Source of the DNA: a virus
DNA: 64,000 nt
Strand: one strand, 5' to 3'
IMG/VR virus record: IMGVR_UViG_3300029985_000042
Location: 1-64,000 of that record
This document shows, one piece after another, positions 11,002 through 36,372 of the stretch (the first letter of the stretch is position 1; every line of letters begins with the position of its first letter). The notes under the pieces were generated by a model that made no database searches, had not been told where the DNA came from, and worked only from the letters and a program-made list of their open reading frames with translations. Both the position numbers and the translations under genes were made by a program.

Positions 11002-12039
11002 ATGAATAACATTATAACTTGTAAATTATGCAATATATCGATTAATACTAGGTCATTTGGAAATCATGTATTAAAGATACACGGTCAAAGACATGAAGAT
11101 TATATCAAGAACAATCTGGAAGATTTCAAACATCTAAATTGGAAATTATGTATCGAGTGTGGAAAATTATGCAATTCTCGCTCTTCTAAATGTGGCACTT
11201 GCTATTCTAAAAATCATACTACGAATAATAAACCTATCCTATGTAAACACTGTGATAATTTAATCCACCCTAAGCAAATGTCACAACATTTGTTAAAAAA
11301 TCATAACATAAAATTCGTCGAATATGTTGCTGAAAATTTAAACGAATTCAAACAATTTGGTTGGTCTAATTGTGTAATTTGCAATAAAATATGTAAGGGG
11401 CATTCTAAAAAATATAACGAGCCAACTTGTTCTGCGGAATGTATGGGCAAATTGAGGGAAACTTGGACTGGCGGGAAATCTGCAATGTATGGAAAAACAC
11501 ATTCGGAAGAGTCAAATAAAAAAAATTCCGACTCTCATATAGGAAAAAAAATGCCAACTATAACTGGTATTTTAAATCCAATGAAAAGACTAGAAATACG
11601 GAAAATCATATCCGATAAAGCAAAAATTAGGCTGTCTATACCAGAAAACAATCCAATGTATGGAAAGAAACACACTCCTGAAGCAATTGAAAAAATATTC
11701 GGATATAGAGGAATGAATAAACTAGAATCTCGTGTCGCTGATATATTAAAATCACAAAATATAGAATATTATTATGGATTTTGTATTGATGAAGGACAGG
11801 AATGTAAAATTTACGACTTTAAAATTAAAGGAAAACCTATTATTTTGGAGATAGACGGAGATTATTGGCATGGAGGCCCCGGAGTGAAAATTCATTTTAA
11901 GAATGTAGAAAAAAATAAATTAAATGATAAATTAAAGAATGAGATGGCGGAAAGACGAGGATATAAAGTAATACGTTTATGGGAATCTGATATCAAAAAA
12001 GACTCGTCAATTATCCTCAAATCTCTTATTGGATTATAG
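11002..12039 (+). CDS. Homing endonuclease, EDxHD/Vsr-like with zinc fingers and NUMOD3
   Basis: A 345-residue protein. Two N-terminal zinc-finger-like modules (CKLCNISIN..FGNHVLKIHG, and CKHCDNLIHPKQMSQHLLKNH) precede NUMOD3-type DNA-binding repeats (NPMYGKKHTPEAIEK) near residues 170-230. The C-terminal nuclease core contains YDFKIKGKPIILEIDGDYWHG and ends KVIRLWESDI. This is the pattern of the Vsr-like EDxHD family (the I-Bth0305I type), which cuts DNA to promote spread of its own gene. It sits between two structural genes next to a duplicated 3' gene end, as expected for an insertion. It is a free-standing gene with its own late-type motif. Confidence 0.8.
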   Translation: MNNIITCKLCNISINTRSFGNHVLKIHGQRHEDYIKNNLEDFKHLNWKLCIECGKLCNSRSSKCGTCYSKNHTTNNKPILCKHCDNLIHPKQMSQHLLKNHNIKFVEYVAENLNEFKQFGWSNCVICNKICKGHSKKYNEPTCSAECMGKLRETWTGGKSAMYGKTHSEESNKKNSDSHIGKKMPTITGILNPMKRLEIRKIISDKAKIRLSIPENNPMYGKKHTPEAIEKIFGYRGMNKLESRVADILKSQNIEYYYGFCIDEGQECKIYDFKIKGKPIILEIDGDYWHGGPGVKIHFKNVEKNKLNDKLKNEMAERRGYKVIRLWESDIKKDSSIILKSLIGL

Positions 12040-12682: not shown

Positions 12683-15028
12683 ATGTATATAAACACAAAA
12701 AATATAAATTATGGGATTGCGACTGCTACATACGCAGATTATGTCGTAGTAGCAAATCCAGATTTTATACCGTATAATCCATCAACCGCCAGCGTATATC
12801 ATACTGGGTCGGTGGATTATTTTCAATACAATTCTGGTCTGGACGAGCACATATTAATTAATACCCTACAACGACCAATTTCCTACGCCGATATATTGAT
12901 TACCACAGAGACAAGCTCGGTATTAAATACTGAACTCCCATTAGAATTGGCATTGGATACTACCAACGTTGTAGACTTAGAAAACTTATTTGGACAGTCT
13001 TTGGATTTGATGGATACCAACTTAATAATAGGGTGTCCCAATTATTTGCAGCAAATTATGGTTGGAAATAATATTATTCAATCGTCTGGGTCTGCGGCTT
13101 ATGTATTTAATATAGGACTTGTAAATTCTACAGCATCTTATAATTCATTATTACAAACTATTCCAAACTCATCCAGCGTCCAAAATTCATTTGGAGCGTC
13201 CGTCGCAATAAATAGGGACTGGTTGGCGGTTGGATGCCCATTGGAAAATAATTCATCTGGTTCCGTTTTTATATATCAATCAATAAGCGGAAGTTGGAGT
13301 TTATATCAGGAAATAAGTGCCAGCACAACTCAATCAAACGCTTTATTTGGGCATAGTTTAAAATTAAACAAAGACGAAAACACTCCGAGTGGACGATTGG
13401 TTGTTGGATGTGGAAATCCAGCGGTGGGGGAGGTATTTTTCTTTGAGATGAGCGGAAGCAAATGGAACCAAACATATGTATTTACTCCCACATATGCCAC
13501 ATATCCTCTAACGATTGGGAACTATGTTCCATATAACATGACTCGAAACACAACAAGTGGATTTGGAAACTCAGTTTCAACTTATGGAGATTCAGTTATA
13601 ATAGGGGAATATTTAGATAGAACGGTATATGAATATAGTGGCTCCGACGCATATCAACAGGGGTCGGTTTCTATATTTGAAAGATGTAACCCAAGTTCTT
13701 CATTATTTAACCTTTCATTTAAGACCTATGGAAATATAAATACTTTGCGGAGCAATTATCTAGGATATTCAGTTGATATATTCGACAGTAATGCCGTGGT
13801 TGGAATACCCAAAAGTAACCAACAGAATATATCAGCATCTTATGTGGAACAAACTTTAAACCAGTATTATCAATGTGAAGATAATATTTTAACTTCACTA
13901 AACGGACAGGTGGCATTACTCATCAACGAGAGCGGAAGTTGGGGCATAGAAAATATATACCAAAAAAAGAAGAAATATTTAAGCCCATATCGAGCGTTTG
14001 GTTACAGTGTATCTGTAGCAGATTATTCCATGGTAGTTGGTGCTCCCATTCTTTTGTCTACGTCAACCCCATCAATAAATATTATAACAACCCAAAGTCA
14101 AAATATAACCTTGGATGAAATATGTGGAAAATCATATATATACAATTTAAATAATTTACAAGACTCATTTCATATTGGAAATGTATTTTACAGGAATGGG
14201 AAAATTGTATTGATGACTTCCGGCTCCATATTTCAAGGATTGTTTATGGATACTGGAAATGATACCACCTATTCTTACAATTTAAACTTCAATGGGGAAT
14301 ATACTATTTATGAGAAACAAATAATATGTCCAGTTGAACCTGGGGAATTTAATGTAAGCACCAATCCAACTTCACTTATAAAATCGAGATATACCTTCGA
14401 TGTAAATAACGATGGAAAGTTTGATTACTATGATTTAGATATTTTAATGCGATATATGGCGTATAAAAACAACCAGTCTAGGGGACTTCCATTTTCAACG
14501 GACTGGAGTTCTTCGATAGTCATGTCGGGCGATGAAATTAGCCTCTTAAATTATTACATATCCAATTCAAAATATAGTGATGCATATATATCACAGCAAG
14601 TTTTAGAATATATTCCGATATGGGATTTTGAGGATACAAGTATTCAGGACTATTTGGATATAAATGGAGATAATATCATAGATGTTAGAGATATGACTAT
14701 AATGTGGAAATATTTTAGTAATCGACTGACCCAAAAAAACTATTCTTCATATATAACCGCAAATTCAAATAGAAAAACATTAAATATAGCCCTCGATTAT
14801 TTGGATGGATTGACGGGTAGAGGCTCGATTCCGGTAATTAACCCTGAGTTTTTTAATTATAGAGATAATATATCACAAGACCCTACCGGCTCATATTTGG
14901 CTCCATACGTCAGTTCAGTTGGATTATATGATAAAAATTTAGAGTTGGTGGCAGTTGCTAAGTTGGGAACACCCATAAAAATAGATGGTCAATTACCAAT
15001 TAATTTCTGTATAAAATTAGATTTTTAA
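12683..15028 (+). CDS. FG-GAP beta-propeller virion protein with dockerin-like domain
   Basis: A 781-residue protein. Residues about 100-465 hold at least five FG-GAP/integrin-type blades (GQSLDLMDTNLIIGCP, FGASVAINRDWLAVGCP, GFGNSVSTYGDSVIIG, LGYSVDIFDSNAVVGIP, FGYSVSVADYSMVVGAP), predicting a beta-propeller. Residues about 570-685 hold two calcium-loop repeats (DVNNDGKFDYYDLD and DINGDNIIDVRDMT), the hallmark of type I dockerin modules. The last 40 residues share the VGLYDKNLELVAVAKL tail with the structural gene ending at 10935. The design (propeller, dockerin pair, common attachment tail) suggests a calcium-dependent host-binding appendage; that role is inference, the domains are visible in the sequence. 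Confidence 0.7.
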   Translation: MYINTKNINYGIATATYADYVVVANPDFIPYNPSTASVYHTGSVDYFQYNSGLDEHILINTLQRPISYADILITTETSSVLNTELPLELALDTTNVVDLENLFGQSLDLMDTNLIIGCPNYLQQIMVGNNIIQSSGSAAYVFNIGLVNSTASYNSLLQTIPNSSSVQNSFGASVAINRDWLAVGCPLENNSSGSVFIYQSISGSWSLYQEISASTTQSNALFGHSLKLNKDENTPSGRLVVGCGNPAVGEVFFFEMSGSKWNQTYVFTPTYATYPLTIGNYVPYNMTRNTTSGFGNSVSTYGDSVIIGEYLDRTVYEYSGSDAYQQGSVSIFERCNPSSSLFNLSFKTYGNINTLRSNYLGYSVDIFDSNAVVGIPKSNQQNISASYVEQTLNQYYQCEDNILTSLNGQVALLINESGSWGIENIYQKKKKYLSPYRAFGYSVSVADYSMVVGAPILLSTSTPSINIITTQSQNITLDEICGKSYIYNLNNLQDSFHIGNVFYRNGKIVLMTSGSIFQGLFMDTGNDTTYSYNLNFNGEYTIYEKQIICPVEPGEFNVSTNPTSLIKSRYTFDVNNDGKFDYYDLDILMRYMAYKNNQSRGLPFSTDWSSSIVMSGDEISLLNYYISNSKYSDAYISQQVLEYIPIWDFEDTSIQDYLDINGDNIIDVRDMTIMWKYFSNRLTQKNYSSYITANSNRKTLNIALDYLDGLTGRGSIPVINPEFFNYRDNISQDPTGSYLAPYVSSVGLYDKNLELVAVAKLGTPIKIDGQLPINFCIKLDF

Positions 15029-15039
15029 TTATACTCATC

Positions 15040-15049
15040 TATATTTATA
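15040..15049 (+). promoter_or_regulatory. Late-type motif TATATTTATA
   Basis: TATATTTATA ends 18 bases before the ATG at 15068, in the AT-rich gap after the propeller gene. Confidence 0.45.
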
Positions 15050-15067
15050 TATAACAAATAAAATATT

Positions 15068-15334
15068 ATGCCAACACCTACCCCAAGACCCAGCGAAACT
15101 ATTAATTTAGAAACTCGTTATAAACAACAGCGAGAAGGCGGTGCATTTGATGCAAAACAAGCCGGAACATCCACGATTACGCCGAGCATGAAGTCCAAAT
15201 TATACAACAAATCAACGAAATATGACATCGACCAATTGCAAGGTCAGTCCGATTTTAAGGGAGTTGATGGTGGTTCTTATAATGAAATTTCCAATTTTGC
15301 AACGGGAATTGATGTAACCCCATATAAGAAATAA
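15068..15334 (+). CDS. Small late protein, unknown function
   Basis: An 88-residue hydrophilic protein (MPTPTPRPSETINLETRYKQ, then GGAFDAKQAGTSTITPSMKSKLYNKS). It lies between a late-type motif and a strong rho-independent terminator, so it is the last gene of the tail operon. No domain is recognised; a minor virion protein is the most likely role. Confidence 0.55.
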   Translation: MPTPTPRPSETINLETRYKQQREGGAFDAKQAGTSTITPSMKSKLYNKSTKYDIDQLQGQSDFKGVDGGSYNEISNFATGIDVTPYKK

Positions 15335-15350
15335 TCCAATACATGAAATT

Positions 15351-15380
15351 AAACTCCCAGATTGGGAGTTTTTTCTTTTT
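15351..15380 (+). terminator. Rho-independent terminator
   Basis: A 9-bp perfect stem (AAACTCCCA, loop GAT, TGGGAGTTT) is followed by a T-rich run, 16 bases after the stop of the preceding gene. It closes the tail-gene block. Confidence 0.9.
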
Positions 15381-15398
15381 AAATACTAGTTATATGAT

Positions 15399-15797
15399 AT
15401 GACAGATATGGGACATTGGGTTACAACAATTGAAATGCCAGATGATGCTATCGGGTTTATATATAAAATTCATAATAAAATAAGTGGTCGGAAATATATC
15501 GGTCGAAAATTGACGGTATTTAAGACCTGTAAAAAAGCACTGAAGGGGAACAAGAACAAACGGCGGGGAACTCGTGAAAGCGATTGGAAAATATATTGTG
15601 GGTCTTGTGTAGAATTACAAGATGATATTGTGAAACTTGGCAAAGAAAATTTTATGTTTGAAATACTTCAGTGGTGCAATTCTAAATTAACTCTGAATTA
15701 TGCCGAGGTAAAGGCCATCATAGATGCGAATGCAATATTCGATGGGAATTATTATAACAAATACGTCGGCTGTAGATTAGTCAACAAAAACAAATAA
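15399..15797 (+). CDS. GIY-YIG endonuclease-like protein
   Basis: A 132-residue protein. GFIYKIHNKISGRKYIGRK (residues 19-37) carries the GIY and YIG elements, and a second conserved part reads DWKIYCGSCVELQDDIVKLGKENFMFEIL. GIY-YIG nucleases include phage Seg/Hef-type homing enzymes, but this one is nearly only the catalytic domain, without a DNA-binding tail. The N-terminal MTDMGHWVTTIEMPDDA may be regulatory. It follows the tail terminator and precedes the primase. Confidence 0.7.
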   Translation: MTDMGHWVTTIEMPDDAIGFIYKIHNKISGRKYIGRKLTVFKTCKKALKGNKNKRRGTRESDWKIYCGSCVELQDDIVKLGKENFMFEILQWCNSKLTLNYAEVKAIIDANAIFDGNYYNKYVGCRLVNKNK

Positions 15798-15798
15798 T

Positions 15799-16026
15799 AT
15801 GATGATACCAACAACTATAACATGTGACCGCTGTAAATCGATAGTGGATGGATTTCTAAACAATTCAATTAAAAGCATTGTAGTAACTTCTGGCTATTAT
15901 GTAGTCGACAAGGGGTATTGGAAAAATTATGGGAATGTGGGCGAAGTAAATGTATGTGACAATTGTATGTTTATTGACCCACGGTATATCAAATCATATG
16001 GCAAATTAGAAGTTAAAAAAAGTTGA
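15799..16026 (+). CDS. Small zinc-ribbon-like protein, unknown
   Basis: A 75-residue protein starting 1 base after the preceding stop. Two CxxC pairs (CDRCK at residues 9-13 and CDNC near 51-54) can form a zinc ribbon. It lies immediately upstream of the primase. No catalytic motif is visible. Confidence 0.5.
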   Translation: MMIPTTITCDRCKSIVDGFLNNSIKSIVVTSGYYVVDKGYWKNYGNVGEVNVCDNCMFIDPRYIKSYGKLEVKKS

Positions 16027-16059
16027 TATTTATTGCCCTTTGAGATATTATGGGGACAA

Positions 16060-17010
16060 ATGTTGGTAAAATCAGATATTATATTAGTGCTGGCCGAAGC
16101 GTTTCGCCAACCAGCAACTTTGCGAAAGGGAGCCACTCAATTGTTATTTGAGTGTCCATTCTGTAATAGACATGACGGGTTTAAAAAATTAGAAATATGC
16201 ATCGAAGGGGAAAGATTTGGATATTGTCATTGTTGGAGATGTAATTTTAAAACTCGATTTTTTGGTTCGTTGTTAAAAAAATTAAATGCTCCAAAACATT
16301 TACGAGACCGAATGTTCGAACTTTCGGGAGAAATTAAAAAAGTAAGAGCATATGCTCGAAAACCAACCCATTCCAATCTTCAATTGCCCGATGAATTTAT
16401 CTCGCTATCAACTACTTCAGCCGATACGGAATATAGGAATGCAATTTCATATTTAAAAAGACGGGGTGTGGAACATGATGATATATTGAGGTATAATATA
16501 GGATATTGTTCGGATGGGAAATTTACTCAACACATCATAGTTCCATCATATGATAGTGACAATAAACTGAATTTCTTCATTGGTCGAAAGTATTATGACG
16601 ACGACTCTCCATATCGTTATCGAAAGCCAGATTGTGATATGGATATCGTTGGGTTTGAAAACTTATTAAATTACAATTGCGATGTTAATTTATGTGAGGG
16701 AGTTTTTGATGCTTTTGCAATTAGAAACAATGCCATTCCTTTATTCGGAAAATATCCATCTAAAAAATTACAAGAAAAGATAATAACGAACGGAGTGAAG
16801 CGAGTTAATATGATATTGGATGACGATGCCGAGACCGACGCAATTAAAAATTGTGAGTTACTGATGAAGTATGGGGTCGACATACATCTTGTAAAATTAC
16901 AAGGTAAAGACCCTTCCAAATTAGGATTTAAGAAAGTTCACGAATTAATCAGAAATTCATTTCCATTTGAGTGGAAGACTCTAATACAGTATAAATTAAG
17001 CAAATTATGA
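16060..17010 (+). CDS. 61: DNA primase, DnaG/gp61-like
   Basis: A 316-residue primase that makes RNA primers for lagging-strand synthesis. The N-terminal zinc site is FECPFCNRHDG..CHCWRC. The TOPRIM domain shows NLCEGVFDAFAI (glutamate motif) and NMILDDDAETDA (Asp motif). Between them, RYRKPDCDMDIVGFENL fits the DnaG catalytic core. A longer frame beginning with a TTG at 16033 exists, but the ATG at 16060 is preferred because GGGGA lies 5 bases upstream and the conserved part starts soon after. It overlaps the next frame by 4 bases. T4 gp61 acts with helicase gp41, which is not in this window. Confidence 0.85.
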   Translation: MLVKSDIILVLAEAFRQPATLRKGATQLLFECPFCNRHDGFKKLEICIEGERFGYCHCWRCNFKTRFFGSLLKKLNAPKHLRDRMFELSGEIKKVRAYARKPTHSNLQLPDEFISLSTTSADTEYRNAISYLKRRGVEHDDILRYNIGYCSDGKFTQHIIVPSYDSDNKLNFFIGRKYYDDDSPYRYRKPDCDMDIVGFENLLNYNCDVNLCEGVFDAFAIRNNAIPLFGKYPSKKLQEKIITNGVKRVNMILDDDAETDAIKNCELLMKYGVDIHLVKLQGKDPSKLGFKKVHELIRNSFPFEWKTLIQYKLSKL

Positions 17011-17279
17011 TTACTAAATTTGTATTATGTTGGTTATTGATATCGGTTTCATTTGAATGTTTTGGTGATTATTTTGAGCCGACATTAAATTTGGTAATAG
17101 AGTGGGATGAGCCTAAACATTATATAAATAATAAAATTCTTAGAGATAAAGATATAAATAGACAATCCGATATTATAAACCATTTACAGTGTGGGTTTAT
17201 ACGAATTAAAGAACGTGAATTTGACGAACAATTGACAATACAAAAAATAAATGAATATATTAAAAACAAATCAAACTAA
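17007..17279 (+). CDS. Small Vsr/DUF559-like nuclease fragment, probable endonuclease remnant
   Basis: A 90-residue frame. NLVIEWDEPKHY, LRDKDINRQSDIINHLQCGFIRIKE matches the C-terminal catalytic core of phage Vsr/DUF559-type nucleases, where such a core usually follows a long DNA-binding region. Here only this core remains, behind a hydrophobic start (MITKFVLCWLLISVS) that may be a chance reading rather than a true signal peptide. It overlaps the primase stop by 4 bases and the next gene by 29. Most likely a decayed homing endonuclease; a small active nuclease cannot be excluded. Confidence 0.5.
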   Translation: MITKFVLCWLLISVSFECFGDYFEPTLNLVIEWDEPKHYINNKILRDKDINRQSDIINHLQCGFIRIKEREFDEQLTIQKINEYIKNKSN

Positions 17280-20200
17280 CATTAAGTATGTAATCCATAT
17301 GGGGGACATACATTGTAGGAATAATTCACGAATAGACGAATTTAAAATTGTATTTAATAATTTCTTTGACAGTATTAAGCATCTACCTAAAGATGAAACT
17401 ATTATCGTTAATTGTGGCGATACTTTCCATCAAAAAACATCAATGGAGCCGGAAGGTTTGCAATTAGTAAAAGATTTATTTGTTGGATGCTCCGATTTAT
17501 TTCCTACGATTATTATTCCCGGCAATCACGATGGAAATGTAGCTTCCAAAACTAGAATGGATGCTGTTACTCCTGTAATAGAATTATTAAATAGAAATAA
17601 TATTTATTACTTGAAAGAATCGGGGCTATATGGATATGCTAACATATTGTTTAATCATATGTCAGTATTCGATGAGCCTGAGAAGTATATTTTGGGGAAA
17701 GATATACCATCAGTATATAGAAATAAATATGAGAGAATTATAGGACTATTCCACGGAGCAGTTGACCAGTCAATGTCGGATACTGGCCACACTCTAGAAA
17801 ATCCTAAAATAATGCTGCCACTATTTGATAACCACCATATTTTTATGCTCAGTGATATTCATTTAGCCCAAAATTTACAAGAATATGATTATCAATACGA
17901 TAAGCCAATAGTTCGGTATTGTGGAAGTTTTTTACAGCAAAATCACGGTGAGTCGTCGGACAAGGGTTATTCTCTATGGGATTTATCCGACATGTCGTAT
18001 ACCCATCATAATTTAAAAAATGATTTTGGATTTTATACGATTGGAATTGACCATGGAAATTTGGTCACTGATATATCACACATGCCAAAAAATGTAAGGT
18101 TGAGAGTTATATGTAAAGAAACAATTCCATCCGAAGTAAAACATATAATTTCAAAGTTAAAAGAGACTCATACTATAATAGAGAGTTCTTTCATCCGAGA
18201 GACGGCTGATGTGGCTACGACAAATAAGGTCGTATCAGATATAAATTTAAAAAATATATTTAATGTGGGATATCAATCGGAATTGATTCGAAAACATTTA
18301 TTAGAAATAACGCCTGATATATCGGTTGATAGACTGGATAAGGTCTTATATATCAATCAAATCATAAATAAAGAATTGGGACTCTCAGACCAATCTAGAA
18401 CGTCGAGATATAAATTAATTAAGATGGAATGGGAGAACATGTTTAGTTATGGCGAAGATAACTGGATAGATTTTACAAACGTCAATGGATTGTATGGGAT
18501 ATTTGGAAAGAATAGAACTGGAAAATCATCTATATTCTCATGTATATTATTTTGCTTGTTTGATAAGTGTTCGATGGCATCAAAAGGGGAAGATATAATC
18601 AACGAGCAAAAATCATCATTTAAATGTAAGTTGGAATTTGAAATTGACGGAGTTCATTATTTCATAGAACGAAAAGGAACCGCCGGACGGACTGGGACCG
18701 TAAAAGTGGATGTTCGATTTTGGAAATTGGAAAATGGGGAAGAGATAAGTCTACATGGAACGGAACGCAGCGACACCAATGAAATAATACGTGGGTATGT
18801 TGGGACGTTTGATGATTTCATACTGACATCGGCATATTTCCAATTTGGAAAACATAATTTATCGTTTATTGACATGGGTAAAAGTGACCGTAAAGATATA
18901 CTCGTTAAATTTATGGGAATTGATGTTTTTGATAAACTATGTAATATTGCGAATGAAAAGAAAAAAGAAATTAATTCCGAGTTAAAAATTCACAGAGGGA
19001 AAGAATATCAATTGGAATTAGTCCAGATGGAAAACGCATTAAACCATGCCGTAGCCCTACATTTGGAATTGTCGGGTGAACTTGATAAGACCAAGATAAC
19101 ACTGGCCGATGTAAACCAAAAAATACAAGCGGAGACATTAAAACTAATTAAACTAGACTCTAATATTCCAACTAATATAGAACATCTAAAACTATCCAAG
19201 GAACGGGTTGAGGCCGCATTGAATATTGAAGAAAAGAATGTATCCACATCAAATATTAAAGTTAAGCGATATGCTCGATATATCGAGATGGTTGAACGTA
19301 GACTTAAAAGAATAGAAGACCTAAACCTAATCGAAAATCATACAAAATATAAGTTACTACTGGATAAAATTTCGTCGGCGAAGAAGAAAATGGATATTAA
19401 GAAGATAGAAATTAAGGGAAAATTGGACAAGGTTGCCAAATTAAAGGCACATAAATACGACCCCAACTGTAAGTTTTGTATTGACAATGAATTTGTGAGA
19501 GATGCATCGTCCTGCCAAGAACAACTAAAACAGGATAGAATTTTGGCCAGAGACTTGGTTGAGAATTTGGAGGCATTGGAGGCGGAATTTGAGACCGTCA
19601 AATGGGTGGACTCTAAATATGGTCTTTATACTAGATTATTAAATAAACGAGGAGAATTAAAAGACATACAACAACTAACATCAACCTTCATACTTGATAA
19701 GAGTAACAACATATCAAAAAATAAAGATATACTAGCGAATACAAATAATAATATTGCCATTTATACTCGAAATTTAACCTCGGTTGAAAACAATAATTCG
19801 GTAAACTTAATATTGTCGTCGCATAAAATAGAAGCGTCTTCATTGGATGTTACCATTCAGAAATTTAATACTCGGTTAACTGAATTATATGGTAAAATTC
19901 AAGTGTTTAAAAATAACATAGTAAATCTGAAATCTGTAATCGAGGTTATTAAAAATAAAGAGACGGAATTGGATGGTTATGAGAAATATATCGAAGCCGT
20001 CGGGCGTGATGGAATTCCATATAAAATAATATGTAATGCCATTCCTACAATAGAGCGAGAAGTTAATGATATATTAACTCAGATTTCAGATTTCACTCTA
20101 AAATTGGAAGATGATGATAATGATATAATACCATATATTTGCAGTGATACGGGGAAACATGTCATTGAATTATGTTCAGGAGCCGAACGATTTGAAATGG

Positions 20201-20451
20201 AATTTGCAATTAGAATTGGATTAATTATGACCTCTAATCTTATAAAATGTGAAAATTTTTATGGCATTGACGAAGGTTTTGGGGTCTTAGATATTGATGG
20301 ATTATCTTCTATGAGCGTATTATTTTCTATAATTAAGCAGAAGTTTTCTTCCACATTCATAATCAGCCACCAAAACGAAATAAAGGATTTGGTTGATTGT
20401 TCGTTAGATATTAAAAAAGTTGATGGATTTTCGCAAGTTCAACATGGTTAA
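17251..20451 (+). CDS. Fused Mre11-Rad50 type nuclease/ATPase (gp47-gp46 fusion)
   Basis: A 1066-residue protein joining two normally separate T4 recombination subunits. Residues about 8-270 are an SbcD/Mre11 metallophosphoesterase: HMGDIHCRNN, VNCGDTFH, IIPGNHDG, and a later LSDIHLA. Residues about 390-1066 are an SbcC/Rad50 ATPase: Walker A GKNRTGKS (419-426), a long charged coiled coil, a zinc-hook CKFC (C740, C743), signature ELCSGAERFEMEFAIRIG, and Walker B FYGIDEGFG followed by the switch histidine in IISHQ. In T4 gp46/gp47 resect DNA ends for recombination-dependent replication. The frame is continuous with no stop between the parts. The start is uncertain because it overlaps the preceding frame by 29 bases, but the next ATG lies inside the first metal motif. 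Confidence 0.88.
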   Translation: MNILKTNQTNIKYVIHMGDIHCRNNSRIDEFKIVFNNFFDSIKHLPKDETIIVNCGDTFHQKTSMEPEGLQLVKDLFVGCSDLFPTIIIPGNHDGNVASKTRMDAVTPVIELLNRNNIYYLKESGLYGYANILFNHMSVFDEPEKYILGKDIPSVYRNKYERIIGLFHGAVDQSMSDTGHTLENPKIMLPLFDNHHIFMLSDIHLAQNLQEYDYQYDKPIVRYCGSFLQQNHGESSDKGYSLWDLSDMSYTHHNLKNDFGFYTIGIDHGNLVTDISHMPKNVRLRVICKETIPSEVKHIISKLKETHTIIESSFIRETADVATTNKVVSDINLKNIFNVGYQSELIRKHLLEITPDISVDRLDKVLYINQIINKELGLSDQSRTSRYKLIKMEWENMFSYGEDNWIDFTNVNGLYGIFGKNRTGKSSIFSCILFCLFDKCSMASKGEDIINEQKSSFKCKLEFEIDGVHYFIERKGTAGRTGTVKVDVRFWKLENGEEISLHGTERSDTNEIIRGYVGTFDDFILTSAYFQFGKHNLSFIDMGKSDRKDILVKFMGIDVFDKLCNIANEKKKEINSELKIHRGKEYQLELVQMENALNHAVALHLELSGELDKTKITLADVNQKIQAETLKLIKLDSNIPTNIEHLKLSKERVEAALNIEEKNVSTSNIKVKRYARYIEMVERRLKRIEDLNLIENHTKYKLLLDKISSAKKKMDIKKIEIKGKLDKVAKLKAHKYDPNCKFCIDNEFVRDASSCQEQLKQDRILARDLVENLEALEAEFETVKWVDSKYGLYTRLLNKRGELKDIQQLTSTFILDKSNNISKNKDILANTNNNIAIYTRNLTSVENNNSVNLILSSHKIEASSLDVTIQKFNTRLTELYGKIQVFKNNIVNLKSVIEVIKNKETELDGYEKYIEAVGRDGIPYKIICNAIPTIEREVNDILTQISDFTLKLEDDDNDIIPYICSDTGKHVIELCSGAERFEMEFAIRIGLIMTSNLIKCENFYGIDEGFGVLDIDGLSSMSVLFSIIKQKFSSTFIISHQNEIKDLVDCSLDIKKVDGFSQVQHG

Positions 20452-21031: not shown

Positions 21032-21697
21032 ATGGCTATAAAATTAAATAAAAATCATTCGAATCTAGATACTATAAAATTATGGATGTCGGGACAAAAG
21101 ACCGATATTAGAGTATCCAACCATATTACAGAAAAAGAGAAGTATAGGCAAGACGGAGAAGAATTTGAATTGCAAGGTATCAAGTATAAAAAAGAAAATG
21201 GAAAAATTATTAAACTTACCAAATCTCAAGGTGATGTAATACGGGAATGTTTAAAGCGAATTTGTAAATGTGGACAGAATATTGCATGGGGAAGTAAAAA
21301 AGACGAATATTTTTACAACCGAACCGGACTATGTGAAAATTGTTTAATCAATTATGAAACCAATCTAAGAATTGTGGGGGCGTATGATGTCTATGAAAAA
21401 TATAAATTATCATCATATGCACTGGGAGACTTAAAAGATAAAAAAGAAAAGGTAAAAGATTTAATTAAATTTTTCATAGAAAATCCAAAAACTGCGGGCG
21501 ATGTTACTTTGCCATGCGAAAATGGTATAGGAAATGATGCCGTGTGGGTCAATACTAATCGAGACCTAATTCTTGAAGATGCTAAAGTGGATTTGAAAAA
21601 AATTAAGAAATTAATAACCCAAGCATCAAAAATGAAACAAGAAAGTAAAAAGTTATATGTAGAGAAGTGTAAAGAATTTAAATTGAATGTAATATGA
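21032..21697 (+). CDS. Conserved-looking hypothetical protein upstream of terminase
   Basis: A 221-residue charged protein with a Cys motif CKCGQNI..GLCENC (about residues 79-115) that could bind zinc. The C-terminal half is Lys-rich and helical (LKDKKEKVKDLIKFFIENP, then LKKIKKLITQASKMKQ). Its place before the terminase gene raises the possibility of a small-terminase-like or DNA-packaging role, but no HTH or family signature is evident. Its stop overlaps the next start by 4 bases, typical of coupling. Confidence 0.5.
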   Translation: MAIKLNKNHSNLDTIKLWMSGQKTDIRVSNHITEKEKYRQDGEEFELQGIKYKKENGKIIKLTKSQGDVIRECLKRICKCGQNIAWGSKKDEYFYNRTGLCENCLINYETNLRIVGAYDVYEKYKLSSYALGDLKDKKEKVKDLIKFFIENPKTAGDVTLPCENGIGNDAVWVNTNRDLILEDAKVDLKKIKKLITQASKMKQESKKLYVEKCKEFKLNVI

Positions 21698-22656
21698 GTA
21701 ATAATTGTAAGATATGTGGAAGTGAATGTAAAAGTGAGACGAAACATGCGTTTCACGCTCATCACATATCATCCGACAAGTATTATGATAAATTTTATAA
21801 GAAAGATGGTGAAGGAGTGTGTAAGATTTGCAATAAGTCAACTAGATTTAAATCGTTTACAGTTGGATATTGTAAATACTGCTCAAATACGTGTGCTAAT
21901 AATGACCCAGAATTTATAGCCAAGATTTCTAACACTGTGAAATCTAAGGAATGTCAAGATAAAATAAAGAATACAAATATAGAAAAATATGGAACGGAAT
22001 ATGGTTTCCAAAGCGAAAATAACAAATCAAAATCTAAAATTACATCATTAAAAAGATATGGTGTTGACAATCCCCAAAAGTCTAAGGTAATACGAAATAA
22101 AACTACAAATACTATCCTTGAAAAATATGGAGTTGACAACTATTCAAAAACTCCAAATTTCAAACAACAAATGACTGAATTTGCGCTCGAAACTTATGGA
22201 TGTAAACATCACTTAAATTCTTCAACAATCCAAGAAAAAATAAAGAAGTATAATATGGAACATTACGGGGTAGAATATAAATTTCAGTCTGATACATTTA
22301 GAAAATCGGCAATGTATAAAGGAAGATATAAATATAAACAATATACTACAAAATTTGGAACTAAATTACATTACCAAACCAAGCCAGAATTAAAGTTTAT
22401 TGAGGAATGTGAGTTGAAAAATATTAATATCGAACAGGGAGATAAAATACATTTTTATTTTAATGGAAAAAATAGAAGATATTTCTGTGATTTTAAAATT
22501 AAAGAACTTGCCGGTTGGAGGTTGGTTGAAGTTAAGAGTAAACATAAATGGTGGTATGAAGAGCTAAAAAATGGAACCGCAAAAGCTAAGGCAAATGCTG
22601 CTATTAAATATAGCAAAGAAAACAACTATTTACCATTCAAAATAAAATTTTATTAA
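21694..22656 (+). CDS. Homing-type endonuclease with KYGVDN repeats
   Basis: A 320-residue protein. A Cys-rich N-terminus (CKICGSECKSETKH, CKICNKS, YCKYCSNTC) precedes five repeats of the IEKYGTEYGFQS / LEKYGVDNYSKT type (about residues 80-205). The C-terminal nuclease shows TKPELKFIEECELKN, YFCDFKIKE and RLVEVKSK, a PD-(D/E)XK-like arrangement with D-x(n)-ExK. The same repeats occur in the 564-residue nuclease at 31054. It is wedged between a hypothetical gene and the terminase, a usual site for a free-standing homing gene. Confidence 0.7.
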   Translation: MSNNCKICGSECKSETKHAFHAHHISSDKYYDKFYKKDGEGVCKICNKSTRFKSFTVGYCKYCSNTCANNDPEFIAKISNTVKSKECQDKIKNTNIEKYGTEYGFQSENNKSKSKITSLKRYGVDNPQKSKVIRNKTTNTILEKYGVDNYSKTPNFKQQMTEFALETYGCKHHLNSSTIQEKIKKYNMEHYGVEYKFQSDTFRKSAMYKGRYKYKQYTTKFGTKLHYQTKPELKFIEECELKNINIEQGDKIHFYFNGKNRRYFCDFKIKELAGWRLVEVKSKHKWWYEELKNGTAKAKANAAIKYSKENNYLPFKIKFY

Positions 22657-22659
22657 TAT

Positions 22660-24294
22660 ATGATACCAGAACCTAAAAAACAATTGACCCAGAAGGAACT
22701 TTTAATATCAGAATACAAGAAATGTGCCGCATCTCCCATATATTTCATGAAGAAGTATATTAAAATTCAACATCAATTAAAAGGGACGATAAATTTTAAC
22801 TTATTCCCATTTCAGGAAGATACTTTACAACAATTAGCGGATAATAAATTTAATATTATTTTAAAATCAAGACAGATGGGGATTTCAACGTTGGTGGCGG
22901 CATATGCATTATGGATAATGATATTTAATAGTGATAAAAATATTCTTATCATTTCAATCAAAGAGGCAACATCTAAAGAATTAATATCTAAAGTAAGATT
23001 TGCTAATGACCACTTGCCATCATGGTTGAAAATACAATGTGAAGAAGACAATAAACTATCTTTAAAATTCAAAAATGGGTCAAACATCCGAGCCGTATCA
23101 TCAAGTGGCGATGCTGGACGTTCTATGGCAGTATATTTATTGATAATAGATGAGGCGGGATTTATCGATGGAATTTCTGATATTTGGGCATCTTCATGGA
23201 GCACGTTGTCAACGGGTGGTAATGCGGTATTATTATCGACTCCAAATGGAATTGGTAATTGGTTTCATAAAATGTGGGTTGACGCCGAAAATAAGACCAA
23301 TAGTTTTAATTCAATCCGATTAAAGTGGGACTTGCATCCGGAAAGAACTCAAACATGGAGAGACGCTCAAACTAAAGAATTGGGAGCAGCATTAGCCGGA
23401 CAGGAGTGTGACACGGATTTCTTGGCTTCTGGAAATAATGTGATTAATTTAGAAACTATTGATTTTTATAAAGAAACATATAAGACAGAACCAGTTGAGT
23501 GTCGTGAATTGGATAGAGCACTTTGGATTTGGCAATATCCAGACTATAATAATACATATATAATATCAGCAGATACAAGCCGTGGGGACGGTGGAGATTA
23601 TCAGGCATGTCATGTCTTAGATGCTGTTACATTGGAACAATGTGCTGAATATAAGGGTCAAATATCAACTAAAGAATATGGAAATTTGTTATGTTCGTTG
23701 GGAAATTATTACAATAACGCATTATTGGTAATTGAACGAGAAAATACAGGCTGGGCAGTTATTCAACAAGTAATAGATAGAGATTATCCGAACTTGTTTT
23801 ATATGACGAAGGATTTAAAATACGTAGACCCCGAAACTCAAGTATCCAATAATTTTTATTCGGAGGAAAAAAAGGCAACTCCCGGATTTTCAACTACCAT
23901 GAAAACTCGTCCAATTATTATTGATAATTTTATCAAATATATGAATGAACGAGAATTAAAGATACGGTCTAGTAGAACGTTGGCTGAAATGGAAACGTTT
24001 ATTTGGAAAAATTTTAAGCCACAAGCCATGCAAGGGTATAATGACGATTTAATTATAAGTTTATGTATTGGACTTTGGATACGTGATACCGCACTCAAAT
24101 TAAGACAACAAGGAATTGATTTAACAAAAGCGTCATTATCACATATAAATAAAACCAAGCTGGATACTACTCCCGTATTTAAAGCACAAGCAAGAAATAC
24201 TGCCCAACAGTCGTGGGAAATGTCAACTGGAAAATTGCCAAATCGACCGTTAGACGGAACTAATATGGAATCATTGCGGTGGCTCTTAGGTTAA
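22660..24294 (+). CDS. 17: Terminase large subunit, T4 gp17-like
   Basis: A 544-residue DNA-packaging motor. The ATPase domain has Walker A LKSRQMGIST (residues 69-77) and Walker B LLIIDEAGF (D164, E165), followed by the coupling motif LLSTPNG. The RNase H-like nuclease domain begins IISADTSRGDGGDYQ, with D305 the probable first metal ligand, and continues LVIERENTG. It cuts concatemers and pumps DNA into the prohead through the portal encoded next. Length is slightly below T4 gp17 (610 residues). No intein or insertion is seen here. Confidence 0.92.
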   Translation: MIPEPKKQLTQKELLISEYKKCAASPIYFMKKYIKIQHQLKGTINFNLFPFQEDTLQQLADNKFNIILKSRQMGISTLVAAYALWIMIFNSDKNILIISIKEATSKELISKVRFANDHLPSWLKIQCEEDNKLSLKFKNGSNIRAVSSSGDAGRSMAVYLLIIDEAGFIDGISDIWASSWSTLSTGGNAVLLSTPNGIGNWFHKMWVDAENKTNSFNSIRLKWDLHPERTQTWRDAQTKELGAALAGQECDTDFLASGNNVINLETIDFYKETYKTEPVECRELDRALWIWQYPDYNNTYIISADTSRGDGGDYQACHVLDAVTLEQCAEYKGQISTKEYGNLLCSLGNYYNNALLVIERENTGWAVIQQVIDRDYPNLFYMTKDLKYVDPETQVSNNFYSEEKKATPGFSTTMKTRPIIIDNFIKYMNERELKIRSSRTLAEMETFIWKNFKPQAMQGYNDDLIISLCIGLWIRDTALKLRQQGIDLTKASLSHINKTKLDTTPVFKAQARNTAQQSWEMSTGKLPNRPLDGTNMESLRWLLG

Positions 24295-24323
24295 AAGAAA
24301 TAGCAATTAATCAACAAAAACAA

Positions 24324-24333
24324 TATATTTATT
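24324..24333 (+). promoter_or_regulatory. Late-type motif TATATTTATT
   Basis: TATATTTATT ends 5 bases before the ATG at 24339, supporting that start over an upstream in-frame start at 24279. Confidence 0.5.
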
Positions 24334-24338
24334 ATAAT

Positions 24339-27300
24339 ATGGCATTAAATACAAACCAACAGATGAGCGATGATATTCTTGATATTAAGAAACAGTCATT
24401 ATATGCAAGATTAAAGACGTTATTTTCATCAGATACGATTGTTCGTAATGTCGGTGGGAAAAAGTTATTAGTTAAGGATACCGACCATTCTCAAATGGCA
24501 ACGGATAGGAATTCTTTACGAGATAGATTTAATAGAATTCGTTCCACGGCATATAATGCATATACCCGTGACTTTACATTATCATATCAAGCGGCAAGAA
24601 TGGATTTGTTTCGTGATTATGATTGTGTAGGTCCCGATACTATAATTCCATTACCTGATGGGTCTAAACCAACAATTAAAGAATTAACGGAAAAATATAA
24701 AGATAAGCCCCAAGAGAGATTTAACGTATTCTCGTATGACCACGTTTCTAAATCAATAAAGATTGGGAAAGCATTTCATCCTAGATTAAAGGGTCCTCGT
24801 GAGGGGTGGAAGGTTACATTTGACAATGGACAGTTTGTTATTGGTAGTGAACGTCATCCATTTATGATGAGAAATGGAGAATATAAGTTAGTCAAGGAAT
24901 TAAAAGTTGGAGAATCGGTCATGCCATTCTATCAATTTGAATATGGATATAAAAATCATGGATTTAAACGATATCGCCGACTATATAACTTCAGTAAAGG
25001 GTGGCAATCGGAGCATAAGATTGTGGCTGAACAGTTTAATAGAAAATTAGAAAAAAATGAAGTTGTTCATCATAAAAATTTTAATGGAGCCGACAATTCT
25101 CCTGAAAATTTAGAAATAATGGACTGGAAAGAACATAAAGCGTTTCATTCTAAGCATAACAAAGAAGTATTGTGGGGCAGCGAGAATTACGATATCCAAC
25201 TTAAAAAATTAAAGGAAAATCCAAATTATATAAATCGAAAGATTCATCATTGGAACGGGGAAAGATTGGGAGAAAACAACCCATTTTATGGTAAAATACA
25301 TTCTAATGAGTCAAATATTCTTAGGTCAAATTCCTTAAAAGAAGCATATAAAGATAGAGACCAAACAGTTGATAAAAATCCAAATTTTAGAACTGATTTA
25401 ACAATTGACGTATTAAAAATTAAAGCTACCGAATATTATAAAGAGAACGGAGAACTTTATATTTGGAAATTAGTTGACAGTATTGGATGTGATTATTCAA
25501 CTATTCAATCTAGATTAAAATATAATAACTATACACGGAACACTTTTAAAGAAGAAATTACATCAACGTTAAATCATAAAATAGTATCGATAGAATCTGT
25601 GGGGATGATTGACGTATATGATGTTACAGTCGACAAATATCACAATTTTGCAACTGATAGTTGCTTCGTGAGTAATACGATGGATATGGACCCAATCCTA
25701 TCAAGTGCGCTTGATATTTACGCCGATGAAACGGTGACTATGAATGAAATGGGTAAGATTGTAACTGTTCATTGCGAAAACAATAATATAAAAGAAATAT
25801 TAACCAACTTATATGAAGAAATATTACACGTTGATTTTAATTTGTGGTCATGGACTAGAAACATGTGCAAATATGGAGATTTCTATCTAAAGATTTATAC
25901 CAATCCAGAATATGGGGTATACATGGTTGAGCCAATATCGGCATATAACGTTGAACGAATTGAAAATTCAGACCCATATAATAAGAAGTATGTGAAGTTC
26001 CAAATTCGACCAACTGATACATCCCAAGCCGAAGTCCTCGAAAGATATCAGATGTCGCATTTTAGGTTGTTGAGTGACAGTAATTTTTTGCCGTATGGTA
26101 AGGGAGTAATTGAGGGTGCTAGACGAGTATGGAAACAATTGTCGCTATTGGAAGACGCTATGTTAATCCATCGTGTCGTCCGTGCTCCAGAGCGTCGTAT
26201 TTTTTATACCGACATCGGAAATATCCCACCGGCTGAAGTTGATAATTACATGCAGAAGCTGATGGATAAGATGAAAAAGGTTCCATACATGGACGAACGC
26301 ACGGGTGAATATAACTTAAGATATAATCTTCAAAACATGCTAGATGATTATTATATCCCAGTTCGTGGTGGCGACTCCGGAACTAAAATTGATACTTTGT
26401 CGGGAATGGAGTGGACGGGAATTGACGACGTTGACTATGTCAAGAATAAAATGTTTGCGGCACTCAAAATTCCAAAGGCATTTTTGAGTTTTGACGAGGC
26501 TGCCGGCGGGAAGGCAACATTAAGTCAGGAAGATTTGAGGTTTGCTAGAACTATTCAACGAATTCAGAAGATAATCGCAAGCGAGCTTGAAAACGTTGGT
26601 ATTATACATTTATATGCTCAGGGATATCGAGACGAAAGTTTAATAGATTTTAAACTTGAACTAACTAATTCAAGCACTATATTCGAGAAAGAAAAAATTG
26701 AGATATGGGCGGATAAAACTGATTTGGCATCTAACATGATGGATAACAAAGTATTTCCCCGTGAATGGATATACAAAAATGTGTTCAAAATGTCTGATGA
26801 TGATACTGAAAAAGTAATGAAGGGATTAGTTGAAGATTCCAAGCAGAAATATAGGCTGGAGTCTATCGAAACTGAAGGAGATGACCCAGCGAAGCCGTTT
26901 AAGAAAATTGGTGGTGCTGGTGGTGCTGGTGGTGAACATGGCGATAAGGGAGGTCATGGAGGCGGTGGCGGTGGTGGCTTGGGAGACTTAGGAGGTCTTG
27001 GCGGAGATACCGAAGCGGAACCGGATGGGGAGGAGACGCCAGAAGGTGAAGTTAATAAGAAGGGGATACCAGAGGAACCTGTCGATGGTAAACCAGAGGA
27101 TATAGTAAAAGAAGAAAGAGACCAATCAGGAGAACACGACGCCGGAGACCATCCATTTGGCGAGGACCCGCTCGGACACAATGAATTGAGTAGGAAGCCT
27201 AGAAATAATAGTGAAGGCAAGCGAAAGAGTGTATTGTATCATAATTTTGAGAATGACTCTCCATTTTCACTTGAAGAAATAAAAGGTCAATTGAAGCCTG

Positions 27301-27446
27301 ATTTATCCAATAAAAAAAATAAGAATGACCTCATTACCATGCTAGGAGAATTCTTCGTTGATAATAAGATAAATACAGCGGAAAATTTAATAGTCGAAAA
27401 CACCACAACCTCATCATTAATGGATGAAAAAAACATAAAAGAGTAA
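24339..27446 (+). CDS. 20: Portal protein, T4 gp20-like, interrupted by an intein
   Basis: A 1035-residue precursor; removing a 351-residue intein leaves about 684 residues. The extein parts join as RMDLFRDYD / TMDMDPILSSALDIYADE, which matches gp20-type portals (DPILSSALDIYADE is the conserved core). Downstream, GVIEGARRVWKQLSLLEDAMLIHRVVRAPERR and IPKAFLSFDEAAGGKATLSQEDLRFARTIQRIQK are diagnostic portal motifs. The portal forms the dodecameric ring at the capsid vertex. After residue ~885 a Gly-rich, then acidic, extension (GGAGGAGGEHGDKGGHGGGGGGG) is longer than in T4. The ATG at 24339 is chosen because it follows a late-type motif and avoids overlapping the terminase. Confidence 0.9.
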   Translation: MALNTNQQMSDDILDIKKQSLYARLKTLFSSDTIVRNVGGKKLLVKDTDHSQMATDRNSLRDRFNRIRSTAYNAYTRDFTLSYQAARMDLFRDYDCVGPDTIIPLPDGSKPTIKELTEKYKDKPQERFNVFSYDHVSKSIKIGKAFHPRLKGPREGWKVTFDNGQFVIGSERHPFMMRNGEYKLVKELKVGESVMPFYQFEYGYKNHGFKRYRRLYNFSKGWQSEHKIVAEQFNRKLEKNEVVHHKNFNGADNSPENLEIMDWKEHKAFHSKHNKEVLWGSENYDIQLKKLKENPNYINRKIHHWNGERLGENNPFYGKIHSNESNILRSNSLKEAYKDRDQTVDKNPNFRTDLTIDVLKIKATEYYKENGELYIWKLVDSIGCDYSTIQSRLKYNNYTRNTFKEEITSTLNHKIVSIESVGMIDVYDVTVDKYHNFATDSCFVSNTMDMDPILSSALDIYADETVTMNEMGKIVTVHCENNNIKEILTNLYEEILHVDFNLWSWTRNMCKYGDFYLKIYTNPEYGVYMVEPISAYNVERIENSDPYNKKYVKFQIRPTDTSQAEVLERYQMSHFRLLSDSNFLPYGKGVIEGARRVWKQLSLLEDAMLIHRVVRAPERRIFYTDIGNIPPAEVDNYMQKLMDKMKKVPYMDERTGEYNLRYNLQNMLDDYYIPVRGGDSGTKIDTLSGMEWTGIDDVDYVKNKMFAALKIPKAFLSFDEAAGGKATLSQEDLRFARTIQRIQKIIASELENVGIIHLYAQGYRDESLIDFKLELTNSSTIFEKEKIEIWADKTDLASNMMDNKVFPREWIYKNVFKMSDDDTEKVMKGLVEDSKQKYRLESIETEGDDPAKPFKKIGGAGGAGGEHGDKGGHGGGGGGGLGDLGGLGGDTEAEPDGEETPEGEVNKKGIPEEPVDGKPEDIVKEERDQSGEHDAGDHPFGEDPLGHNELSRKPRNNSEGKRKSVLYHNFENDSPFSLEEIKGQLKPDLSNKKNKNDLITMLGEFFVDNKINTAENLIVENTTTSSLMDEKNIKE
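24624..25676 (+). mobile_element. Intein with HNH homing endonuclease in the portal gene
   Basis: This 351-codon insertion begins at Cys (CVGPDTIIPLPDG, block A) and ends SCFVSN before extein Thr. Splicing motifs include GSERHPFM (block B, with the TxxH-like histidine) and VYDVTVDKYHNFAT (block F). Between them lie an HNH nuclease (EVVHHKNFNGADNSPENLEIM) and a NUMOD3-like piece (GENNPFYGKIHS). It is placed just before the conserved DPILSSALDIYADE core, a typical intein site. The penultimate residue is Ser rather than the usual His. Confidence 0.9.
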
Positions 27447-35403: not shown

Positions 35404-36372
35404 ATGGCTACAATTTTAAATAAACCACAAGCGTTAAATTATAAAAATATTATACTGAAACATGGTAAATGTATAGTATCTTCCCGAAGTGAGTGTGACA
35501 TTTCCACTACTATCGCCAACAAAAAAGTTGCCGCACCGGTATACATATCCAACATGATTTCGGTATTAAATCATGATATTGTTAAAAAATTTGATGATAA
35601 TAAATGGTTTCATATATGGCATAGAATAGGGGATTATCAACACATAAAAGACTATGTAAAATGGGCAAACGAGTCTAACCTATATTTCGTATCAATATCA
35701 ATTGGTATTAAAGAACAAGATATGGATTTATTGAAATGGTTAAAGGAGTCGGGATATAGAATTGACAGTATTTGTATAGATGTTGCGTTTTCTTATAATG
35801 ACATTATATTGCCGATTATAGAATATATAAAAAACAATTTTCCAACTACATATTTAATAGTTGGAAATGGAGATAGCACAGATTGGATTTTATGGCTGGA
35901 AAAATATGGGGTAGATGCTGCAAAAATAAATATTGGAGTTTCCGCCGCCTGTCGGACAAAACAATTCACCGGGTTTGGGTCAACTACAATTACTGATTTA
36001 TATGAGTGTTCGAAAGTATCTAATATTGATATCATATGTGATGGTGGGTTGACCGTCGAAAATAATGAAGTATGGATTGGTGATATTGCCAAAGCCATAA
36101 GATTTGGTGCTACAGCAGTAATGTCGGGGACTCTATTTAAAAATTGCATTGATTCACCGGCATTAACAAATTCATACTATGGTAATGCAAGTAGAAAAGC
36201 AAAGGGTAATAATCATGTCGAAGGAACTATTCTTGACAACATACAGACTAATGGATTGACAACTGTAGAGTTGATTAAATTAATTGAAGAATCGCTTCGC
36301 TCATCCATGAGTTATAGCGGCGGGCGGGTGTTATCCGACCTAACTAAATGTGACTATCAAATTATAAATTAG
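35404..36372 (+). CDS. GMP reductase / IMP dehydrogenase-like enzyme
   Basis: A 322-residue TIM-barrel protein without CBS domains, nearer the length of GMP reductase (~345) than IMPDH (~490). The catalytic loop reads AKINIGVSAACRTKQFTGFG, with C183 at the position of the active-site Cys. The phosphate-binding strand is IICDGGL, then GDIAKAIRFGATAVMSGTLF. YYGNASRKAKG matches the YxGMxS segment. GMPR reduces GMP to IMP, IMPDH oxidises IMP to XMP; the sequence does not tell which. It would adjust the guanine/adenine nucleotide pool for phage DNA synthesis. The gene has its own sigma-70-like promoter and converges on a homing endonuclease with an 11-base overlap. Confidence 0.75.
   Translation: MATILNKPQALNYKNIILKHGKCIVSSRSECDISTTIANKKVAAPVYISNMISVLNHDIVKKFDDNKWFHIWHRIGDYQHIKDYVKWANESNLYFVSISIGIKEQDMDLLKWLKESGYRIDSICIDVAFSYNDIILPIIEYIKNNFPTTYLIVGNGDSTDWILWLEKYGVDAAKINIGVSAACRTKQFTGFGSTTITDLYECSKVSNIDIICDGGLTVENNEVWIGDIAKAIRFGATAVMSGTLFKNCIDSPALTNSYYGNASRKAKGNNHVEGTILDNIQTNGLTTVELIKLIEESLRSSMSYSGGRVLSDLTKCDYQIIN

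What the first reader, a model, noticed from the sequence alone, without database searches (positions are those of the whole stretch)
17251..20451. Single-chain Mre11-Rad50 fusion (gp47-gp46) in a T4-like phage
One uninterrupted frame carries a complete SbcD/Mre11 phosphoesterase (HMGDIHC, GNHDG) and a complete SbcC/Rad50 ATPase (Walker A 419-426, zinc hook C740/C743, DEGFG Walker B). In T4, T5 and cellular systems known to me these are separate subunits forming an M2R2 complex. A covalent 1:1 chain fixes stoichiometry and raises the question of how a dimer and its hook assemble.
Basis: partly seen in the sequence, partly recalled or inferred. Interest (0 to 1): 0.8.

Follow-up and report, generated by a model that had tools for sequence, protein, structure and literature searches.

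The report
Phage DNA-repair pair fused in one
A T4-like phage carries its two-part DNA-end-processing enzyme (Mre11 nuclease and Rad50 ATPase) as one continuous protein; this is real, but such fusions have been described since 2011 and turn out to be common in uncultured phages, so it is a good example of a known kind rather than a surprise.

Summary
In detail: window 17251-20451 (+) is one open frame of 1066 aa with a complete SbcD/Mre11 half (1-374) and a complete SbcC/Rad50 half (386-1066), including hook C740/C743. It is not a misassembly: a separately named contig matches it exactly across the junction, and 194 of 197 distinct related records hold both halves in one frame. The novelty claim fails. 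Mre11/Rad50 fusions were described in 2011 (PMC3175470), including phage-like ocean sequences beside primases; here a primase sits just upstream in 148 of 165 evaluable loci. In sampled trees the fused proteins form one clade apart from T4 gp46/gp47: an old fused lineage, not a fused T4 pair. The stoichiometry puzzle dissolves: the split enzyme is M2R2 (PMC6265447 passages), so a homodimer of the fused chain gives the same assembly. Side finding: one sister subclade (82 of 191 frames that reach the hook) replaces the CxxC hook by a C-x6-C at the coil apex. Member of a known kind; interest modest.

The parts
17251..20451 (+). Fused Mre11-Rad50 (SbcD-SbcC) gene, 1066 aa plus stop
17251..18012 (+). 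Mre11/SbcD phosphoesterase domain, residues 1-254 (ligand positions D19 H21 D57 N92 H93 H168 D202 H204)
   Evidence: AF2 model; VIA-align 7dog_B Z 24.8 over model 12-317; alignment columns
18025..18201 (+). Mre11 capping domain, residues 259-317
   Evidence: strand-helix-strand elements in AF2 model; within the 7dog/4lty match
18202..18264 (+). Loop, residues 318-338, partly of low confidence
   Evidence: pLDDT under 50 at 317-329
18265..18372 (+). Helix-loop-helix (Rad50-binding) segment, residues 339-374
   Evidence: helices 339-353 and 359-374; role inferred from position
18373..18405 (+). Short linker joining the halves, residues 375-385
   Evidence: between the HLH and the first Rad50 strand
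18406..19005 (+). Rad50 N-terminal ATPase lobe, residues 386-585; Walker A at 18505-18528
19006..19449 (+). Ascending coiled coil, residues 586-733
19468..19479 (+). Zinc-hook motif CKFC, residues 740-743
19489..20001 (+). Descending coiled coil, residues 747-917
20002..20448 (+). Rad50 C-terminal ATPase lobe, residues 918-1066 (signature 975-979, Walker B D1007/E1008, H-loop near 1037-1041)
16033..17010 (+). DnaG-type primase, conserved upstream neighbour
   Evidence: phrog_47 E 1.9e-30; neighbour in 148 of 165 evaluable loci
17007..17279 (+). 90-aa frame overlapping the primase end and the fusion start; no family hit; the same slot holds other small frames in relatives

Best explanation
It is a phage-encoded single-chain Mre11-Rad50 nuclease-ATPase, a member of an old, widespread phage fusion lineage. 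Shown by sequence and model: one frame, both folds, the ATPase motifs, the metal-ligand positions (one His replaced by Asp), a two-cysteine hook, a primase neighbour, and a RecA-family gene in large relatives. Inferred: two chains pair through the Mre11 phosphoesterase dimer, the ATP-bound Rad50 heads and the hook, rebuilding the usual M2R2 complex as a homodimer; each HLH docks on its own coiled-coil root through the ~11-residue linker; and the enzyme processes DNA ends for recombination-dependent replication and repair, as gp46/gp47 does in T4. Fusion would give co-expression and a 1:1 supply rather than a new mechanism.
For: Domains and motifs. AF2 model, pLDDT 83.1, pTM 0.45: Rad50 half Z 31.3 to E. 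coli SbcC heads (7yzo_D), Mre11 half Z 24.8 to S. aureus SbcD nuclease+cap (7dog_B) and 23.5 to E. coli SbcD (4lty_B). One frame in 194 of 197 distinct records, and in 94 of 96 loci found with the Rad50 half alone, the other 2 being cut by a contig edge. Hook cysteines in 191 of 191 fused frames that reach the hook. In 8 large records the SbcD profile finds the fusion in 6 (one of them with a second, weak place), nothing in 1, and only another place in 1. Primase upstream in 148 of 165 evaluable loci. RecA family in 7 of 7 large records. Split SbcCD is two Mre11 plus two Rad50 (PMC6265447, passages). The 2011 authors found the Mre11 C-terminus near the Rad50 N-terminus (~28 A, bridged by 9-12 residues) (PMC3175470, parts 1-3 of 5 read).
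Against: No activity, oligomer state or expression is shown. Position 202 is Asp where P. furiosus has His206; all 19 fused rows have it, as does split Vibrio phage phi 3, so the nuclease chemistry may be altered. pTM is low, so domain placement in the model says little, and no dimer was modelled. The record is a 67.5-kb fragment, so a second, split copy elsewhere cannot be excluded; the huge phage LR756501 has a separate SbcC-like and SbcD-like frame besides its fusion.
Confidence: 0.85

Rival explanations
1. Assembly artefact or pseudogene: two adjacent genes joined by a missed stop or frameshift.
For: Metagenomic contig; no raw reads available.
Against: Exact separately named contig across the junction; intact relatives at 33-66% identity including an isolate; 194 of 197 records fused.
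Confidence: 0.01
2. Independent, recent fusion of the T4-type gp47 and gp46 genes in this phage.
For: T4-like head genes; in T4 the order is also 47 then 46, with two small genes between.
Against: Fused rows form one clade (100/100 on both halves joined; 97/99 on Mre11 alone; 100/99 on Rad50 heads alone) apart from T4, RB43, ACG-2014a and Maynard.
Confidence: 0.04
3. The chain is cut after synthesis, or has an internal start, and works as a split 2:2 complex.
For: A low-confidence loop at 317-329 could be cut; T4 gene 17 shows internal starts in its annotation.
Against: The junction is kept open in 194 of 197 diverged records; a complex of separate chains would not need the frame to be kept.
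Confidence: 0.06
4. A defence or counter-defence ATPase (Lamassu LmuB-like) rather than replication/repair.
For: PADLOC LmuB matches the Rad50 half, E 1e-17; Lamassu structures appear in the Foldseek list.
Against: Full Mre11 half in the same chain; PHROG SbcC match far stronger; primase neighbourhood; LmuB itself resembles Rad50.
Confidence: 0.04

Closest known systems
Mre11/Rad50 (SbcD/SbcC) fusion proteins, e.g. mimivirus R555 and ocean (GOS) homologues (PMC3175470)
   Same: Mre11 half first, Rad50 half second in one chain; HLH and short linker; GDxxH and an Asp in place of His206, as the paper reports for R555; phage primases on GOS scaffolds, as here
Microcystis phage Mel-JY01 (PP395634.1) protein WWT39521.1
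   Same: 1066-aa fusion, same primase neighbour, 32.6% identity
   Different: Annotated only as 'AAA domain containing protein'
T4 gp47/gp46
   Same: Same two activities, gene order 47 then 46, T4-type phage
   Different: Two genes (339 and 560 aa), shorter coil, separate clade
E. coli SbcCD
   Same: Folds of both halves
   Different: Two genes, longer SbcC, separate clade

Membership tests
Mre11/SbcD nuclease | Calcineurin-type metal-ligand motifs D-H, D, N-H, H, (H)-H | tested here: met
   D19 H21 D57 N92 H93 H168 H204 present; the His206 position is D202
Mre11/SbcD nuclease | Phosphoesterase plus capping fold | tested here: met
   7dog_B Z 24.8, 279 residues, 3.5 A
Mre11/SbcD nuclease | Mn-dependent nuclease activity | not testable with these tools
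   needs biochemistry
Rad50/SbcC ATPase | Walker A, signature, Walker B, H-loop in a bipartite ABC head | tested here: met
   7yzo_D Z 31.3, 349 residues, 3.3 A
Rad50/SbcC ATPase | Antiparallel coil with CxxC hook at the apex | tested here: met
   C740/C743 between helices ending at 733 and starting at 747
Mre11/Rad50 fusion proteins (PMC3175470) | Both halves in one chain, Mre11 first | tested here: met
Mre11/Rad50 fusion proteins (PMC3175470) | HLH kept and about 9-12 residues between HLH and Rad50 | tested here: met
   HLH 339-374, next Rad50 strand at 386
Mre11/Rad50 fusion proteins (PMC3175470) | Groups with R555/GOS homologues in a tree | not tested
   no R555 or GOS sequence was fetched; none was found in the collections used
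T4 gp47/gp46 pair | Two separate genes in the T4-type clade | tested here: not met
   one frame; separate clade
Lamassu LmuB | Rad50-like ATPase working with LmuA effector | tested here: inconclusive
   LmuB profile matches but SbcC profile is stronger and a Mre11 half is in the chain; an LmuA search of the neighbourhood was not run

The most novel reading that the evidence does not exclude
The fusion arose once in an ancestral phage and founded a large, nearly all uncultured family of single-chain Mre11-Rad50 enzymes that remodels its dimer contacts: one subclade has replaced the supposedly universal CxxC zinc hook with an invariant C-x6-C, perhaps making a hook that pairs only with itself and not with host or rival-phage Rad50.
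Probability: 0.15. Interest if true: 0.6.

Novelty: new member of a known kind. Interest (0 to 1): 0.3.

Why it matters
A one-gene, ~1050-aa Mre11-Rad50 with fixed stoichiometry would be a convenient system for structural and single-molecule work, and the lineage shows that a covalent M-R link is stable over large divergence. The C-x6-C subclade would make the role of hook geometry directly testable.

Tried and rejected
Plasmid-borne relatives: tblastn of the window protein gave 5 plasmid records, none covering 80%. The C. kluyveri plasmid and Bacillus phage 0305phi8-36, named in PMC3175470, could not be reached under the accessions tried, so whether all known fusions share one origin is untested; the fused rows in my trees were chosen for likeness to the window or its relatives. 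I first took the 90-aa frame upstream for a homing-endonuclease remnant (so written in a notebook entry); no family supports it and L004 has a C39-peptidase-like frame in the same slot, so I dropped it. In the 40-row trees one requested row (L243) fell out because my split pattern failed on it. In genome contigs, 5 of the 80 kept loci have Mre11 and Rad50 signal in one frame (L117-L121, L119 cut by the contig edge); 75 do not. Of the 96 loci many are contigs already seen, so they are not added to the 197. In one search the hook pattern missed 3 of 94 fused frames; not followed up. The motif patterns missed some of the 194 frames (GDxxH in 178 and GDxxD in 1; D.H.R in 183; GNH[DE] in 191; Walker A in 192); some frames are cut by contig edges or differ in letters, and they were not resolved one by one. 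Papers PMC5105663 and PMC9096886, listed with one 'sbcdc' occurrence each, were not opened.

Full report
What is there. The frame 17251-20451 (+) encodes 1066 aa without a stop. Pfam and PHROGs each find an Mre11/SbcD half and a Rad50/SbcC half. The window is 64000 of a 67512-base IMG/VR virus record, and PF13476 has one match in it, this gene. The AF2 model on a 28-sequence alignment (pLDDT 83.1, pTM 0.45) reads as phosphoesterase 1-254, cap 259-317, loose loop, HLH 339-374, 11-residue linker, Rad50 N-lobe from 386, coil up to 733, hook, coil down 747-917, C-lobe. VIA-align puts the Rad50 half on E. coli SbcC (Z 31.3) and the Mre11 half on SbcD of S. aureus and E. coli (Z 24.8, 23.5).

Real, not an artefact. 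L003, a separately named contig, equals window 14534-18733 with no mismatch, through the junction. Of the 286 loci held, leaving out the window's own two, three duplicates, nine reference loci and the 75 non-fused loci of the genome-contig scan (75 of 80 kept; classified), 197 distinct records remain; 194 have the Mre11 N-part and Rad50 in one frame, 182 of them closed at both ends, median 1054 aa. The three others are L119, cut by its contig edge, and L007 and L108, where the Mre11 half is broken at the same place after GDIHKxQ; in L007 the gap holds a frame with a TnsA-like endonuclease domain. Because the earlier scans rank by the full fused query, two more scans used the Rad50 half alone: of 96 loci, 94 are fused and 2 start at a contig edge. 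Split members of this lineage were not found.

How common. Among 50,697 phage records the lineage is nearly absent: matches over both halves only in Mel-JY01, LR756508 and the duplicate records LR756501/LR756503. In IMG/VR it is frequent: 314, 206 and at least 568 confirmed matches in overlapping scans, of which only the best 80 of each were examined. The only isolate seen with it is a Microcystis phage.

Kinship. On 33 rows the 19 fused proteins are one clade (100/100), beside a clade of six split phage pairs (95/94) and outside the cellular rows. With 26 fused rows, Mre11 alone gives 97/99 and Rad50 heads alone 100/99 for the fused group, so both halves tell the same story. Three subclades appear: A (window, CxxC), B (L106 type, C-x6-C), C (huge-phage L008 type). 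The fused rows were picked by likeness to the window or its relatives, so this points to one origin for this lineage, not for every fusion known.

Context. A DnaG-type primase lies upstream in 148 of 165 evaluable loci; 29 more had under 1.5 kb upstream, and 17 lacked it within 2.5 kb, among them ten subclade-C loci. Seven of seven large records hold RecA. T4-type head genes stand in the window. In eight large records the SbcD profile finds the fusion in 6 (one with a second, weak place), nothing in 1, and in the 735-kb LR756501 only another place; LR756501 also has a separate SbcC-like frame.

Mechanism. SbcCD is two Mre11 and two Rad50 (PMC6265447, passages seen), so two fused chains supply exactly that complex; a 1:1 chain is no obstacle. 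A two-cysteine hook is kept in all 191 frames that reach it (109 CxxC, 82 C-x6-C; 3 frames end before it). The helices of the SbcD dimer interface (PMC6265447) seem to have counterparts at 67-83 and 106-113 (correspondence inferred). End resection for recombination-dependent replication is inferred from T4 gp46/gp47 as summarised in PMC3175470. One caution is D202 in place of His206: present in 19 of 19 fused rows and in split Vibrio phage phi 3, but His in the other 13 of 14 split rows; PMC3175470 reports the same change in R555.

What is known. PMC3175470 (parts 1-3 of 5 read) described 13 Mre11/Rad50 fusions in mimivirus, a Bacillus phage, plasmids, bacteria and eukaryotes, noted abundant R555-like sequences in viral metagenomes, found phage primases on the GOS scaffolds, and argued that fusion fits the M-R contact. 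That matches the present family closely. Further searches (listings only, plus passages of PMC7824862) showed me no other paper on phage fusions of this kind; the listed papers were mostly not opened, and most subscription papers are not held.

Side finding. Subclade B lacks CxxC; 82 of 82 such frames have exactly one C-x6-C in residues 600-880, the two cysteines are invariant in 28 of 28 aligned rows, and the AF2 model (pLDDT 80.8) puts them in the apex loop 718-727 between helices 674-717 and 728-765. All 14 split reference Rad50s have CxxC, and PMC5093744 (passages) calls the CXXC hook conserved in all forms of life. One search on hook motifs (listing only) showed no report of a C-x6-C hook. 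Whether it binds zinc is untested.

Verdict. New member of a known kind, interest 0.3.

Noticed in passing
L106:4986-8114, residues 720-727; likewise L120, L121, L208-L286: Subclade B of the fusion family has a C-x6-C (typically VPCGDxFPTC) at the coiled-coil apex instead of the CxxC zinc hook: 82 of 191 frames reaching the hook.
   Followed up: partly
L002 4241-6715 and L004 5989-7656 against window 17251-20451 and L001 5989-9189: Mosaic gene: L002 is about 95% identical to the window over residues 1-240 and lower after, while it is roughly 45% identical to L001 over the first 120 residues and about 97% from residue 262 on; recombination inside the fused gene swaps the nuclease part.
   Followed up: partly
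L007 1950-6175; L108 3304-6544: Two relatives have the Mre11 half broken at the same spot after GDIHKxQ; in L007 (484-kb phage LR756508) the gap holds a frame with a TnsA-like endonuclease domain.
   Followed up: partly
window 24279-27446: T4-type portal gene interrupted in frame by an intein with an HNH nuclease (Intein_splicing 123-464, Portal_T4 467-846).
   Followed up: partly
window 12683-15028: 781-aa protein with FG-GAP repeats and a dockerin-like match, odd for a phage.
   Followed up: no
window 44466-45836, 41234-42343, 35404-36372: Nicotinamide phosphoribosyltransferase, RlaP-type nucleotidyltransferase and an IMPDH/GMP-reductase-like gene.
   Followed up: no
window 11002-12039, 15399-15797, 21694-22656, 31054-32748, 55172-57199: Several homing-endonuclease-like frames (NUMOD3, GIY-YIG-type, DUF7487, HNH) within 64 kb.
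   Followed up: no
LR756501.1 (L008) 451881-452144, 670999-672753: A 735-kb phage carries separate SbcD-like and SbcC-like frames besides its fused gene.
   Followed up: no
PHROGs phrog_77 and phrog_100: T4 gp46 matches phrog_77 only from position 293 of 967 and T4 gp47 ends at 377 of 989 in phrog_100, so these profiles may already contain fused members.
   Followed up: no
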